From Watersipora subatra (taxonomy: Eukaryota > Bryozoa > Gymnolaemata > Cheilostomatida > Watersiporidae), in NCBI RefSeq assembly GCF_963576615.1, contig NC_088711.1:4712001-4776000 (forward strand): a DNA stretch of 64,000 nucleotides, read 5' to 3'. The translations under genes were made by a program, and so were the position numbers. The first letter of the stretch is position 1. Every line of letters begins with the position of its first letter. The notes below the pieces were generated by a model that saw only the letters and a list, made by a program, of their open reading frames with translations, did not search any database and was not told where the DNA came from. Shown here piece by piece: positions 1-63,878 of this stretch.

Positions 1-139
1 GGAAAGTATTTGGAACTAGCTGCATGCAGTTTTTAAATACCTTGCATTATATATTTTTGAATGACAAATGTATTGTTTATTTAAATGTCATAGCTAGGTT
101 GCTCTAATAGCATTCAATTAAAATTAATTAAAAATACTT

Positions 140-16773: not shown

Positions 16774-17553
16774 CAGTGTCGTATAGTTTCACAGAGTCCC
16801 GTGACCAAAAGCCGGAAACAAAAACGTCCGATTCCAAACAAACCCGATCGACATACTGATCTCTAATGGAATATTCTTACCTCGCTCTCAACATCTCACT
16901 CTTTTGCATTTACTTTACTTTATTACAAAAAATCATTAGTCGTTTCTTGTAGAGAATTTTGTCCTTTTTCAAATGGTGTATAATACAATAATCAATTTCA
17001 AAGGGACTGCCAATGGTAGTAATTTTTGTTGGTTAGTGTTGCGGCATCTCCATTATAACTTATATAAAACAATAGTGGGCGCGGCTTGTTTGCTTGGAAC
17101 CGTGCGAGCTTCGATATGCGCAGCCGTTAGCAGCAAAACTCTGTGAAGTTATACAGCTCTGTTCTGTCAGAGTCATATAGCTTTAAAAAGTCTCGCGACC
17201 AAAACCGGAAACAAAAACGTCCGATTCCAAACAAACTCGATCGACATACTGATCTATAATGGAATATTCATACCTCGCTCTCAATACCGCTCTTTTTTGC
17301 ATTTACTTTACGTTTTTACAAAAACGTTGTTAGCACCTTTTTGTAGGAAATTTTGTTTTCTTTCAAATGGTTCATGATACAACAATCAATTTCAAAATGA
17401 CTGCTAATGGGAGTAGTTTTTGTTGATTGATGTTGCGACCTCTCCATTATAACTTATATAAAAATAGTAGGCGTGGCCTGTTTGTTTGGAATCGAGCGAG
17501 ATCCCGTATACGCTTCTGTTAATCGCGGGACTCTGTGAAACTATACGGCTCTG
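16774..17553. mobile_element. hAT-type MITE, tandem dimer
   Basis: Termini CAGTGTCGTATAGTTTCACA (left) and the complement of a right end reading CTGTGAAACTATACGGCTCTG are inverted. GGTTGTAG flanks both sides (16766-16773 and 17554-17561), a perfect 8-bp target duplication as made by hAT transposases. The CAGTG/CAGAG ends fit the hAT CAGNG rule. Inside, a right-end sequence (about 17144-17166) is followed after a few bases by a second left end (about 17173), and the two halves share long similar segments. This is therefore two copies head-to-tail. No coding capacity. Confidence 0.85.
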
Positions 17554-18604: not shown

Positions 18605-18869
18605 TACAGTCATGTGCAAAAGTATGGAGCCGCCCCTTAAGTACTTACAATATCAAACTTCAAGCTGTTGTTACTCAGCTTAGAATAAAGCTACAGCAAA
18701 TATATTAGTATCATTTTAATGCTGAGGGTGTCCTCTATTTGATTATTTTAATTATTAACTTGCTCAATTAATAATTACAACAACAGGCTGCCCTCTAAAG
18801 TTTAATGTATGGATTTATGCAATCTACTAGATAATTTTCAAATGTGAACAACTTTTTGAACAAGTTGGT

Positions 18870-18885
18870 GGCCTTGAAAAAGGCC
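18870..18885 (-). promoter_or_regulatory. Histone-mRNA-type 3' stem-loop in a Tc1 element
   Basis: On the minus (transposase sense) strand the sequence is GGCCTT-TTTC-AAGGCC, a perfect 6-bp stem with a TTTC tetraloop. It is preceded by CCAAC and followed by ACCAAC. This matches the metazoan replication-dependent histone 3' processing stem-loop: 6-bp GGC-rich stem, UUUC loop, ACC-type flank. It lies about 90 nt past the remnant transposase C-terminus. Confidence 0.7.
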
Positions 18886-18989
18886 GTTGGTTATATAAAT
18901 ATTCTCTATAAGAGTGTGGAGGTGATTTGTGAAGTCTGGTAGTATCAGTACTTGATTGGTCAGCCTTTGTTCTCTGTGACAAGACCACA

Positions 18990-19960
18990 GCGGTTGGGTT
19001 TTGATGTAACCAACTTTTCAGGTTCTGATTGGCTCAATTACGCTGTGCCAAGCTCTCACAAGGCCTTCCATCAGCTCTTCATTAGTCTTGGGCTAAGTCT
19101 TGTTTAGTATAGCTGTTATATGCTACAACACAGTTTCCAAGGGATTCAGATCTGGGCTCTGAGCTGGCTATGGCACTGTGCACTCTCTCTTGTTGCATTC
19201 ATTTTTTGACTTTTTTGACACAGTGGCAGAGAGCACTGTCATCTAGGAACCACCAGTCAGTAGAACCTTTACCAAACAACGCCGTAGAACTTGGTAACAC
19301 CTCACTTTACATGGTTTTGATATATTTTTCTCTGTTCATCATGCCAAGTACAAAGTCAACCCGTCCAACTCCTAATGCCGCCATACAGCCCCAAACCATC
19401 ACTGATGCCGCGTGCTTTACCGTGGGAGTACTACACCACGACTTGAAAGCTTCTCTTGGTTTTTTTCTAACATACTGCAAATCAGAGCGGTTAGTAACAG
19501 AAAACGTAGATTCATCAGAGAAAATCGCTCTTTTCCACTGGTCCACACTCCATGTCTTGTGCTGGTATGCCCACTTTAATCGATTGTGCCGTTGTTTCTC
19601 TGTCACCATTGGCTTCTTTCTTGCTTTACAGCCTTTCAACCTGGCAGCAATTAGTAATATTACTAATTAATATTACTTGTGTCCTGCCAGTCTCTGATTA
19701 GTTCACTGCTAGACTTTTTATGGTCTGTCAAGGAAATCCGCATCGGAGTTCTGTCTTCTCTGCAAGTCCTCATTTTTGGGCGACCAGAACGTAGTTTTTC
19801 TGTAGTACTGCCAGTCTCGTAGAATCTTTAAATGACACCAGACACTTTTTTTTGAACAACAAACTTTTTTGGAAATTTCTCACATAGACAATCCTTCTTT
19901 ATGAAGGCAAATAATGGTTGCTCGCTGTTCTGCGGTAGTTTTCATAGTGAGGATGTTACT
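18990..19960 (-). pseudogene. Tc1 transposase, broken
   Basis: The best-preserved part is 19307-19639 (110 codons). It has the Tc1 pattern with the first catalytic Asp in IFSDEST, then YVRKKP, the GGG-like turn, SVMVWGCM and NREKYI. Just downstream the second catalytic region (a DDSALCHC remnant of the usual QQDNAPCH motif) is out of frame, and the C-terminal EELMEGLVRAWHSVI-type helix follows near 19050. Upstream, 19700-19950 gives a degraded helix-turn-helix N-terminus with a stop and frameshifts. Several independent lesions make this copy inactive. It would have cut and inserted the surrounding element at TA sites. Confidence 0.9.
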
Positions 19961-20345
19961 AATGAAAATATATTACAACAAATGCACAGAATGGTAAAAT
20001 TGTTTACTTTTCTATCCTTAGTTACACAAAAATTGCAAAACTTCAAAGGTTTTGAAACAATGGCTTCAAGAGATTGAATTATAATAATTACTTGTACTCG
20101 CTTCCTATTATTATTAAATAGTAAACTTATTTGAGTGAGAGTGTCATGTCTTTTAGGAGATTACACAAGCGAAGTAAATTGTTTAATTATGTTTTAAATA
20201 GCACCATCATGTAGAGGAGATTGTGAGAATTAAAATGATATTTTGTTTTGTTATATTTGAAATTGCCCACTTTATTCTATTTGAAATTGAACTTTGAGTT
20301 TACGCAAATTCACAGGGTGGCTCCATACTTTTGCACATGACTGTA

Positions 20346-61331: not shown

Positions 61332-62924
61332 CTAAGAAAAAAGGTGCTTCTCAGCTTGCCAGCTGCACAAATACGATGTGGTGCGTTAGAGATTATGACG
61401 AATTGAAATTAACAAGTTTAATATGAGAAAGCGTATCTGTTATTTGCGATAGATCAAACTTGAACTGAAACTAACATTATTTGATCATGTGACTTACAAT
61501 TCCCGCCATATGGCGCGAACAGCTTCTACAGCATTTTACGACCATCATAGCGGACCAAAAGGCTCATCATTTTTATCAGAGGATGATATGCAATCGTTCA
61601 AGCTAAGTTAAAAAATTAAACATATTTTTATGCTATGTTTTGAGATATCAGTGCTCAAAGTTGCAGCATTGCGATGCCGATAAAATAGACGCGTAAGAAC
61701 AATAGACATGGTTTTTATCGCAAGCGTGAAGTATATTTGTGAAAATAGTTCGACGAATAAGGATGCATGAAAGTGTAAACATAAACCATCTCCCACATAT
61801 ACGTCACATTTTAGCCGTTTTGGAAAACGAATCCAAACTAGGGCGGTCTCGTGTCGCTGCGATTTTCTGTTCGTTTTTGAGCTTTTAAGAGCTTTTAATC
61901 ACATTCCCACATATTTGGCACCTACAACACAACAGAGTAAGACATGGCGAATCTTTTGATACCAAATAACTGTAATGTGAATTTTGTTGCAAGTCAACCT
62001 TTAACACGGCTAACAATGGATCGATGCTCACAACTCCTCTTCTATTGCACATAAAAAGCTAGTTTTGGCTGCAAACTGTAGCAAACATATCAATGAGTGC
62101 AGCGAGTTTTTATTCAATATTTTTAAATATGGATATACATGTATAATAAAAAAACGTGTTTTCAAATTTAGAAAATAAAAAAATTGAAAGCTCTAACAAA
62201 TTGCAAAGGAAGGCACAGGCAATAATATCATCGCAGATTAATTGCAAGCAATAGATAACTAGTAGATATATTTCTAGGATTCCCAATGCATAATTTATTT
62301 AACAATCTTTGACAAATTAGAGGTACCTGTAAGTTAGCAAATCTATTGCATACAAAAGGTTTAATATCGGTACACTGGAAAAAGAGGGCAAAATATGAGC
62401 GACACTCGCTTCGCCCGTAAAAGGCTAAAATTATCTTCCCAAAGTTCTAAGGAGCCATTTGAAAAATAAAACGCCAGCCTCTATTTGAGCCCCATCTCCA
62501 ATTGACCGCCACAAAAGAGGGAGAGTTGAAAAACATACCGTCATGGCATTCAATTAAGAGGTTTTACGGTATATACATATGTATACATATATATTATACA
62601 TACAGTGCTGAACAAAAGCTTGGACTCACCATGCATCATTGATTATTTTGTAAATGTATTGGAGATTATTGGCTTTAATTTTCTTCAAACCACGGCAAAT
62701 TATATATCAAACTGTTCAGAAACATGCTGGCTACACAATATATGGCTACACAAGTTTCAATTCCATTTTAAACATATCAAAGGTGATCAGGAGGGATTTC
62801 CGCAATCATATATGTTATCAATGAAAAGCGTCTATTCTGACTTAAGTTTTGCAACACTAATTTTGATCAAAAACTTTGTATGTGACAAGGATAAAATTGA
62901 ACATTAACTCTTGTATAGGTTGGT

Positions 62925-62940
62925 GGCCCTGAAAAGGGCT
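62925..62940 (-). promoter_or_regulatory. Histone-mRNA-type 3' stem-loop in the second Tc1 element
   Basis: On the minus (transposase sense) strand: AGCCCT-TTTC-AGGGCC, followed by ACCAACC and preceded by CCAAC. It has a TTTC loop and a 5-bp stem, plus an A/C mismatch at the base where the consensus has G-C. It begins about 20 nt after the transposase stop. Confidence 0.65.
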
Positions 62941-62954
62941 GTTGGGGTTGTTTT

Positions 62955-63385
62955 GAAGGAGTTTAGTAGTTAGTAGTACCGCCCTTGGCTTTGACAGCCA
63001 TTTAATATTCTTTTTTCTTTTTTTTTGGTTTTCTCTTTGCTTTGCATCCCCTAAGACCACTGGCCAAAAGTCTCCTTCTGACGGTTCTAGGGTCAACATT
63101 AACCCCTGTACTCTCCTTCCCGTCCTTAGCCAATTCATGGCTGGATTTATGACGATCAACAAGAGACAGTCTGACAAGTGTCCTGTCATAGCGCTCAGAT
63201 GATTTTCAAGGTCTTCCGAATCTGGAACGCGCTTTAAGGCTTTTGGTCTCATTCCAGCGTTTCATGGTTGATCTTACACCTTTCTCACTGCATCCAACTT
63301 CTTGGGCTTTCTTTCTGGCGGACATCTTTTTCTTGTGCAAGTGCATAATAACTCCTTGCTTATCTTCAGAAAGTGTGGCGGGCAT
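62955..63385 (-). pseudogene. Tc1 transposase, catalytic core deleted
   Basis: Starts MPATLSEDKQGVIMHLH, with two helix-turn-helix units (KKMSARKKAQEVGCSEK and, after a stop and frame change near 63205, VDPRTVRRRLLASGL). It goes almost at once to the C-terminal signature (KAKGGTT, N, Y, stop) at about 62960. The whole DDE domain between them is missing, and a run of eight or more A bases on this strand (about 63015-63030) marks the junction. It cannot encode an active enzyme. Confidence 0.85.
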
Positions 63386-63457
63386 GTGTACATGTAGTGT
63401 ATAAAGTAATGGAAAGTCTTTATATGAGAAGTCTACTGTTTGATGCAACCATAGATA

Positions 63458-63527
63458 TATATACCTATGTATATATATACATATATATAGATATATATAC
63501 ATAGGTATATACAGTATATCTATGGAT
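63458..63527. repeat. Palindromic TATA-rich repeat
   Basis: CCATAGATATATATACCTAT at one end and TATATCTATGG at the other are inverted around TATATACATATATA. It lies inside the second Tc1 element near its left (5' sense) end. Confidence 0.75.
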
Positions 63528-63878
63528 GCAACTTTTATATTCTATGGAAGGCTTTGTCTGTTGCACATTCTTCGTTAAAATGCCAGACATTCCTTAAATC
63601 CAATATACAGTAGAAAGAAAAATCTCATCATGATTGGATTTAGGTGTCATGGTGTGTTTAATACAGCCAATTATTGCTACAAATTGGATAAATTAGTCCT
63701 TTAATCCTCTTATGTAATATGTGTAAAATTATGTAATACATATTATGTAATCAATTAGAGTTGAGCATCATTAATAGCCTTGATAGGACTGAAACTGATC
63801 TGTATATGACGATTTGAACTAATGCATGTAAGGCCCTTGAGAAATGTAAGGACGAGTTTAAACTTATGTTCAGCACTG

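What the first reader, a model, noticed from the sequence alone, without database searches (positions are those of the whole stretch)
18870..18885. Tc1 transposon 1 carries a histone-mRNA-type 3' stem-loop after its transposase
On the transposase sense strand the sequence is GGCCTT-TTTC-AAGGCC, flanked by CCAAC and ACCAAC. This is the form recognised by SLBP at the 3' end of replication-dependent histone mRNAs (6-bp stem, UUUC loop, ACC flank). It sits about 90 nt past the transposase remnant. If used, the transposase mRNA would end without poly(A) and be limited to S phase, which would tie transposition to DNA replication. Seen: stem, loop, flanks, strand and position. Known: the histone consensus. 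Inferred: function.
Basis: partly seen in the sequence, partly recalled or inferred. Interest (0 to 1): 0.8.

Follow-up and report, generated by a model that had tools for sequence, protein, structure and literature searches.

The report
Tc1 transposons with histone-type mRNA ends
In this animal genome most sampled Tc1 jumping genes end their transposase gene with the 3'-end signal of the animal's own histone genes, suggesting that the transposase message is made like a histone message, without a poly(A) tail and tied to DNA replication.

Summary
The hairpin at 18870-18885 (-) is an above-threshold Rfam Histone3 match (40.4 bits, E 1.9e-8). A second Tc1 copy of another family (62603-63878) has a decayed version. 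In the 784-Mb host genome, a Tc1 sample picked by transposase domain, blind to the hairpin, carries it on the sense strand in 116 of 147 copies read and on the antisense strand in 0 of 147, 19-53 nt after the first in-frame stop in 92 of the 116. Across 14 families whose 3' UTRs are otherwise at chance identity (0.18-0.43), the hairpin with its CCAAC/ACCA flanks stands out. A downstream element matching that of 16 host histone 3' ends (consensus AAGAGTTGTTC, similar spacing) follows in 11 of 14 families. The host has histone clusters and two SLBP-like loci. Best reading: this Tc1 clade uses the complete histone pre-mRNA 3'-end signal for its transposase mRNA. S-phase coupling follows from known histone biology and is untested. 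The window copies are dead fossils. The nearest precedent seen is a non-coding Mutator element in root-knot nematodes (PMC3169594). No transcript data were available; U7 was not found.

The parts
18607..20343 (-). Tc1 element 1 (family F), 1737 bp, terminal inverted repeats, TA on both sides (18605-18606, 20344-20345)
   Evidence: inverted repeat pair I1, ends printed; 40 matches scored of 83 candidates, 81-100% identical over the 3' part
18945..19945 (-). transposase remnant of element 1 (stops and frameshifts), C-terminus ...PIKY* in another frame, stop 18945-18947
   Evidence: three-frame translation; Pfam HTH_Tnp_Tc3_2 6.2e-7, 30 bits, just below its cut-off of 31.5; coordinates
18870..18885 (-). 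histone-type 3' stem-loop, 59 nt after the transposase stop
   Evidence: RF00032 40.4 bits
18864..18869 (-). ACCAAC, expected cleavage region 4-5 nt past the stem-loop
   Evidence: sequence; cleavage distance from a passage of PMC7026596
18846..18856 (-). histone downstream element-like AAAAGTTGTTC (host histones: AAGAGTTGTTC)
62603..63878 (-). Tc1 element 2 (family G), internally deleted, 1276 bp, TA on both sides
62963..63385 (-). transposase remnant of element 2, C-terminus AKGGTTNY*, stop 62963-62965
   Evidence: Pfam HTH_Tnp_Tc3_2 6.9e-12
62925..62940 (-). decayed histone-type stem-loop AGCCCTTTTCAGGGCC, 22 nt after the stop
   Evidence: RF00032 26.6 bits, E 0.0027, below gathering
62899..62912 (-). 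histone downstream element-like AAGAGTTAATGTTC
   Evidence: sequence; family G segment tested

Best explanation
A clade of Tc1 (DD34E) transposons in this genome uses the complete 3'-end signal of replication-dependent histone genes for its transposase mRNA: stem-loop with CCAAC/ACCA flanks a few tens of bases after the stop codon, then a U7-type downstream element 11-14 nt later. Expected working, by analogy with histone pre-mRNA: host SLBP binds the hairpin, U7 snRNP pairs with the downstream element, the pre-mRNA is cut after ACCA, and the mRNA ends in the hairpin without poly(A); its abundance and translation would then follow S phase. Shown here: presence, strand, position, likeness to the host's histone 3' ends, conservation between families, host SLBP-like loci. 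Inferred: processing, lack of poly(A), S-phase timing, and that the carriers form one clade. The two copies in the window are dead remnants.
For: Rfam match above cut-off in the window. Host genome: 75 RF00032 matches were scored of 137,633 candidates, 74 above cut-off; 70 of the 75 were fetched, 70 of 70 have the core within 2 mismatches, and 53 of 70 show a Tc1 C-terminal motif (in one of three frames) ending 21-53 nt upstream. Hairpin-blind sample: 150 DDE_3 places scored of 488 candidates, 147 read; scored with a matrix made only from host histone genes, 116 of 147 exceed the 99.9% shuffle level on the sense strand, 0 of 147 on the other strand. Between 14 families the UTRs are at 0.18-0.43 identity but columns -10 to +19 average 0.70-0.92. 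Downstream element: 11 of 14 families p<0.01 against shuffles, ten of these at spacing 11-14; histones 10-13. Host: 16 of 16 H3, H2B and H2A genes examined carry the stem-loop, ACCA (15) or ATCA (1), and a downstream element with 8-11 of 11 consensus letters. The best Tc1 copies score higher in Rfam (42.9) than these histone genes (27.6-36.7). Four SLBP domain exon hits at two loci. Open 341-aa transposase frames with both domains precede the signal in L046 and L007; these proteins are 63% identical while their families' UTRs are 0.21 identical. Changes on both sides of a pair at 3 of 6 pairs.
Against: No transcript, poly(A) or binding data. Within families the hairpin drifts much like its surroundings (family F 0.081 against 0.075/0.081; family B 0.021 against 0.030), so no selection is seen on inserted copies. 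Family H (28 copies in H/H2) has a defective stem (pair 5 C-A); the H segment has no detectable downstream element (p 0.46; H2 and H3 not tested) and an AATAAA 44 nt after the hairpin's first base, as have H2 and H3 at 44-45. Families I (p 0.21) and O (p 0.06) are not significant for the downstream element. Four other Tc1 families put beside the histones in Rfam score about as the histones do (28.7-37.9). U7: two weak Rfam hits whose 5' end does not fit, and 0 matches to a designed pattern. 7 of 14 family segments hold an AATAAA/ATTAAA near the hairpin, so absence of poly(A) signals cannot be claimed. 31 of 147 sampled copies fall below the threshold. The pair-change control is only modestly exceeded (32 of 500 shuffles reach the number of pairs, 7 of 500 the number of cells).
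Confidence: 0.8

Rival explanations
1. The hairpin and downstream element act, but mainly for export, storage or translation through SLBP (for example maternal storage in oocytes), while many transcripts are still polyadenylated downstream; timing to S phase is weak or absent.
For: 7 of 14 family segments hold poly(A)-like hexamers near the hairpin; the host has two SLBP-like loci, and a specialised second SLBP is known in frogs (recalled). Family H keeps a hairpin-like sequence with AATAAA shortly after it.
Against: A U7-type element at near-constant spacing; as far as I recall it has no known role outside cleavage.
Confidence: 0.12
2. Passenger: an ancestral Tc1 captured a histone 3' end once and descendants inherited it without use.
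For: Hairpin drifts freely among copies of a family; some families have decayed forms.
Against: UTR flanks between families are at chance identity while hairpin, flanks and, in 11 of 14, the downstream element are kept.
Confidence: 0.04
3. DNA-level element: the palindrome serves transposase binding or strand transfer, and resembles a histone signal by convergence.
For: It is a perfect inverted repeat inside the element, about 316 nt from the 3' end in two family A copies.
Against: Loop, unpaired flanks and downstream element match the host's histone genes, sense strand only above threshold and after the stop; a repeat search at 12 bases or more listed no matching site elsewhere in element 1.
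Confidence: 0.03
4. Chance hairpin in one dead copy.
For: Of the other three exact genome matches to the 16-mer, one (L001) passes the Rfam cut-off, one scores below it and one does not match; the backwards control has one match.
Against: Rfam E 1.9e-8, and the family and other Tc1 families have it.
Confidence: 0.01

Closest known systems
Replication-dependent histone pre-mRNA 3' end (stem-loop, ACCA, HDE; SLBP and U7 snRNP)
   Same: Stem, loop, flanks, downstream element and spacing like those of 16 host histone 3' ends; transposase ORF without intron just upstream in L046 and L007
   Different: The gene is a transposase; some families' hairpins are degenerate; processing untested. [quoted passage not shown]
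Tm1-HH elements of root-knot nematodes (Mutator/Foldback), PMC3169594
   Same: A DNA transposon family carrying a histone hairpin (passages seen)
   Different: Eight copies in M. incognita without coding potential for a transposase; the transposase-encoding element is a separate class. Here the hairpin follows Tc1 transposase genes, some with open frames, in many families, with an HDE
Tc1/mariner transposons, DD34E Tc1 clade
   Same: HTH_Tnp_Tc3_2 and DDE_3 domains, DDNAPCH and DLNPIENLW motifs (motif names recalled), inverted ends, TA flanks
   Different: Histone-type 3' end after the stop. A second Tc1 lineage in the same genome (C-terminus HTKY, HTNY or HTEC; L146, L183, L198, L204, L206) shows none in the 500 bases read

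Membership tests
Histone 3' stem-loop (RF00032) | Covariance-model score at or above the gathering score | tested here: met
   40.4 against 34 bits; the second window copy 26.6, not met; 8 of 16 host histone genes met it
Histone 3' stem-loop (RF00032) | Short distance after an ORF stop, sense strand | tested here: met
   59 nt in element 1; 19-53 nt in 92 of 116 copies; sense 116 of 147, antisense 0 of 147
Histone-type pre-mRNA | Downstream element matching that of host histone genes | tested here: met
   11 of 14 families p<0.01, including F and G of the window; not H, I, O
Histone-type pre-mRNA | Pairing of the downstream element with host U7 snRNA | tested here: inconclusive
   No convincing U7 found
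Histone-type pre-mRNA | Host has SLBP | tested here: met
   PF15247 four exon hits, two loci
Histone-type pre-mRNA | Cleavage after ACCA, no poly(A), S-phase restricted | not testable with these tools
   no RNA data
Replication-dependent histone gene | Encodes a histone | tested here: not met
   encodes a Tc1 transposase
Tc1 (DD34E) transposon | DDE_3 and Tc1 HTH domains, inverted ends, TA target site | tested here: met
   (window copies are remnants with HTH matches only; both domains in relatives L046, L007)
Tm1-HH (Mutator/Foldback) | 9-bp target duplication, Foldback-type ends | tested here: not met
   TA flanks and Tc1-type ends

The most novel reading that the evidence does not exclude
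A whole Tc1 clade has turned its transposase mRNA into a replication-dependent, non-polyadenylated histone-type mRNA, so that transposition is confined to S phase (including the rapid early embryonic S phases), when a sister copy can refill the excision gap; this would be a second class of metazoan protein-coding mRNAs ending in a histone stem-loop, kept for a long time by selection on active copies.
Probability: 0.6. Interest if true: 0.92.

Novelty: new variant of a known kind. Interest (0 to 1): 0.86.

Why it matters
Cell-cycle timing of cut-and-paste transposons is an old question: moving a copy during replication can raise copy number, but I know of no eukaryotic cis-signal that sets the timing (recalled). 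If these elements end their mRNA as histone mRNAs do, timing is written in about 45 bases of the 3' UTR and can be tested directly. It would also break the rule, as stated in PMC6303110, that only histone mRNAs among metazoan protein-coding messages end in this stem-loop, warn that oligo-dT libraries miss such transposase transcripts, and show a parasite competing with histone genes for SLBP and U7.

Tried and rejected
Chance: rejected. Recent capture of a histone gene fragment at this one locus: rejected, since the family and other families share it and the translated element shows no histone. Hairpin as coding sequence: rejected, it lies after the C-terminal stop. Compensatory change as main proof: only modest; the conservation profile carries the weight. 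Poly(A)-signal depletion as proof: not usable. U7: Rfam hits judged spurious by their 5' ends, a pattern with 19 fixed bases gave 0, a looser one did not complete. A genome count of the 20-base motif GGCCCTTTTCAGGGCCACCA did not complete. A DNA search for copies of element 2 did not complete. Other exact 16-mer matches: L001 is an Rfam match after an unknown open frame, L002 weak, L004 none. No tree of the transposases was made, so a single origin of the signal is not tested. The host species was not identified; H4 and H1 genes were not examined.

Rows dropped: 5 of 75 RF00032 places were not fetched (class of 40.3-bit matches); 3 of 150 DDE_3 places were not read (each has an RF00032 match). 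Families C, D and E enter the 14-family comparison only through hairpin-based searches; the other 11 have members in the hairpin-blind sample. Families C, D, E and N rest on one copy each; four sequences were left unassigned and those scoring under 5 were skipped. Of the 14 compared families, J, K and M were left out of the pair count because their 29 bases equal those of A or C; C2, H2 and H3 were added there. For family F, 20 further copies were chosen by hand over the identity range, of 40 listed. The shuffles keep base composition only.

Full report
The thing itself. On the minus strand the window reads ...TATAACCAAC GGCCTT-TTTC-AAGGCC ACCAAC TTGTTC AAAAAGTTGTTC.... The 16-mer is at 18870-18885 exactly. 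Rfam scores the stretch 18846-18890 as Histone3 (RF00032), 40.4 bits, above the gathering score of 34, E 1.9e-8. The element is a 1737-bp Tc1 copy (18607-20343) with inverted ends and TA on each side; its transposase is broken by stops and frameshifts, and the C-terminus PIKY* stops 59 nt before the hairpin. A second, internally deleted Tc1 (62603-63878) with different ends has AGCCCTTTTCAGGGCC with the same CCAAC and ACCAAC flanks 22 nt after its stop (26.6 bits, below cut-off).

Genome survey by the hairpin. The window belongs to an unnamed 784-Mb genome. A search with RF00032 scored only 75 of 137,633 candidates; 74 are above the cut-off, spread over ten of the large contigs. I fetched 70 of the 75. 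All 70 have the hairpin core within 2 mismatches, 65 of 70 exactly GGCCCTTTTCAGGGCC, and 53 of 70 have a Tc1 C-terminal motif of the form G.P..Y* (third letter P, T or S) ending 21-53 nt upstream, 45 of them at 53 nt; the other 17 show no such motif (L007, for example, ends KS).

Genome survey blind to the hairpin. A search with the DDE_3 transposase domain scored 150 of 488 candidates. 33 of the 150 have an RF00032-listed hairpin 146-184 nt past the domain on the same strand, none on the opposite strand within 2 kb. I read the 500 bases past the domain for 147 of the 150. With a 25-position matrix built only from host histone genes, 116 of 147 exceed the 99.9% level of 1,470 dinucleotide shuffles on the sense strand; 0 of 147 do so on the other strand. 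Distance from the first in-frame stop: 53 nt (53 copies), 19 (9), 22 (7), 30 (6), 24 (5), 20 (4); 92 of 116 lie at 19-53 nt. The rest are mostly longer (to 217 nt), as a premature stop would give, and two are negative. Of the 31 below threshold, 21 have a positive score, 18 of these in the family H cluster with a degenerate hairpin, and 10 have none. Read by eye, those 10 are truncated or deleted copies, one other gene, and five copies of a second Tc1 lineage ending HTKY, HTNY or HTEC without the signal.

Host histone genes. PF00125 finds 25 places, most of them in five clusters. I read the 3' ends of 16 genes (H3, H2B, H2A): 16 of 16 have a stem-loop (GGCCCTTTTCAGGGCC in 9, GGTCC...GGACC in 4, other variants in 3), then ACCA (15) or ATCA (1), and 10-13 nt after the stem a downstream element sharing 8-11 of 11 letters with AAGAGTTGTTC. 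Their Rfam scores are 27.6 to 36.7 bits, 8 of 16 at or above 34.4 and the others below the cut-off of 34 except none between; the best Tc1 copies reach 42.9, while four other Tc1 families score 28.7 to 37.9. SLBP's RNA-binding domain is found as four exon hits at two loci. U7 was not found convincingly.

Conservation between families. I grouped the Tc1 copies by UTR similarity and compared majority segments from -40 to +100 around the hairpin. Fourteen families have pairwise identity 0.18-0.43 outside the hairpin and downstream element, about chance. Mean column identity is 0.31-0.32 upstream, 0.70 in -10..-1, 0.89 in 0..9, 0.92 in 10..19, 0.47 and 0.39 over the downstream element with its variable spacing, and 0.26-0.31 after it. 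Eleven of the 14 families have members in the hairpin-blind sample; C, D and E do not. The transposases of L046 (family B) and L007 (family A) are 63% identical and the family UTRs 0.21.

Downstream element. A matrix from the 16 histone elements, applied to the 42 nt after each family's hairpin, gives p<0.01 against 1,000 composition-preserving shuffles in 11 of 14 families (F, G, A, B, C, D, E, J, K, M, N), with O at 0.06, I at 0.21, H at 0.46. J, K and N hold AAGAGTTGTTC exactly. Spacing from the hairpin is 11-14 nt in ten of the eleven (A: 18). The score exceeds that of the next 42 nt (Wilcoxon p 0.002) and of the reverse complement (p 0.0001).

The family of the window copy. A DNA search scored 40 of 83 candidates of the 3' part, 81-100% identical. 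I aligned the window copy, two already held and 20 more chosen by hand (23 in all): the consensus is CCAAC GGCCTTTTTCAGGGCC ACCAACTTGTTCAAAAAGTTGTTCAC. The window's T-A at pair 5 is T-G in the consensus; only one of the other 22 copies (L223) also has T-A. 13 of 23 keep all six pairs, 6 keep five, 4 keep four. Divergence is 0.081 in the hairpin region, 0.060 in the downstream element, 0.075 and 0.081 beside them, as expected of neutral drift. Among the seven more distant copies L225 and L228 read AAAGAGTTGTTC at the downstream element, as the histones do, and L227 and L229 AAAGAGTGTTTC. Selection is therefore seen between families, where only active copies leave descendants, and not within them.

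Pair changes. On 15 distinct rows (14 family segments and the window copy) 92.2% of cells pair; pairs 1, 4 and 5 have changes on both sides (G-C to A-U in H and H2, C-G to U-A at pair 4 in H and at pair 5 in the window copy), pair 5 is broken in four rows and pairs 1 and 2 in one and two. Against shuffles this is modest: 32 of 500 reach the number of pairs, 7 of 500 the number of cells, 4 of 500 the covariation score.

How it most likely works. By established histone biology (PMC7026596, passages: U7's 5' end pairs with the downstream element and the cut falls 4-5 nt past the stem-loop; PMC5636114 and PMC2781718, starts of abstracts in a search listing: SLBP and U7 recognise these signals, and the stem-loop is needed for replication coupling), the transposase pre-mRNA should be bound by SLBP, cut after ACCA and left without poly(A), with S-phase dependent level and translation. 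Open 341-aa transposase frames precede the signal in L046 and L007, so it is present in copies that may be active. Why it would pay: transposition during replication allows repair from, or movement away from, a sister copy; this step is inference.

What is known. Ten searches of the paper library listed no report of histone stem-loops in Tc1/mariner elements. Listings were complete for (0 papers; 0; 12; 11; 6; 2), and partial for (25 of 12,719; 15 of 12,631; 15 of 1,050; 20 of 25); titles and starts of abstracts only were seen, and the library holds only open-licence PMC papers. The nearest precedent is Tm1-HH (PMC3169594, passages): eight Mutator/Foldback copies in M. incognita with a histone hairpin and no transposase. 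[quoted passage not shown] I therefore rate this a new variant of a known kind: known signal, known transposons, new pairing on a large scale.

Limits. No RNA data; U7 not found; host unnamed and no other eukaryote genome searchable; counts are lower bounds because the searches score only part of their candidates; the transposase tree was not built.

Noticed in passing
L001:1476-1521 (-), G000:C1:16458367: A histone-type stem-loop (34.3 bits) 25 nt after the stop of an unknown basic open frame of 109 codons (no Pfam match over cut-off, no PDB match below E 0.38): possibly another non-histone gene with this 3' end.
   Followed up: partly
L002:1475-1521 (-) and L116: A repeat without a minus-strand ORF of 60 aa upstream in L002 carries a stem-loop (25.6 bits, below cut-off) followed by a TAGAGTTT-like stretch; a similar one lies 139 nt past a family B stop in L116, without an Rfam match there.
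   Followed up: partly
G000:C4:7381366-7383869 and C1:5038680-5043683: Two separate SLBP-like loci; a second SLBP could be a germline or oocyte form.
   Followed up: no
L119, L120, L131, L136 and other family H copies: Family H has a defective stem, no detectable downstream element and AATAAA 44 nt after the hairpin's first base, as if it had returned to polyadenylation.
   Followed up: partly
L146, L183, L198, L204, L206: A second Tc1 lineage (C-terminus HTKY/HTNY/HTEC) shows no stem-loop; AATAAA/ATTAAA lies about 80-105 nt past the stop in L146, L183 and L198, farther in L204, none in L206.
   Followed up: partly
window 16774-17553: Two direct copies about 393 bp apart (75-91% identical pieces) enclosed by 38-nt inverted ends, 84% complementary: probably another mobile element.
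   Followed up: partly
window 63443-63530: A long AT-rich hairpin of simple repeats inside Tc1 element 2; it gives many below-threshold miRNA matches in Rfam, likely spurious.
   Followed up: no
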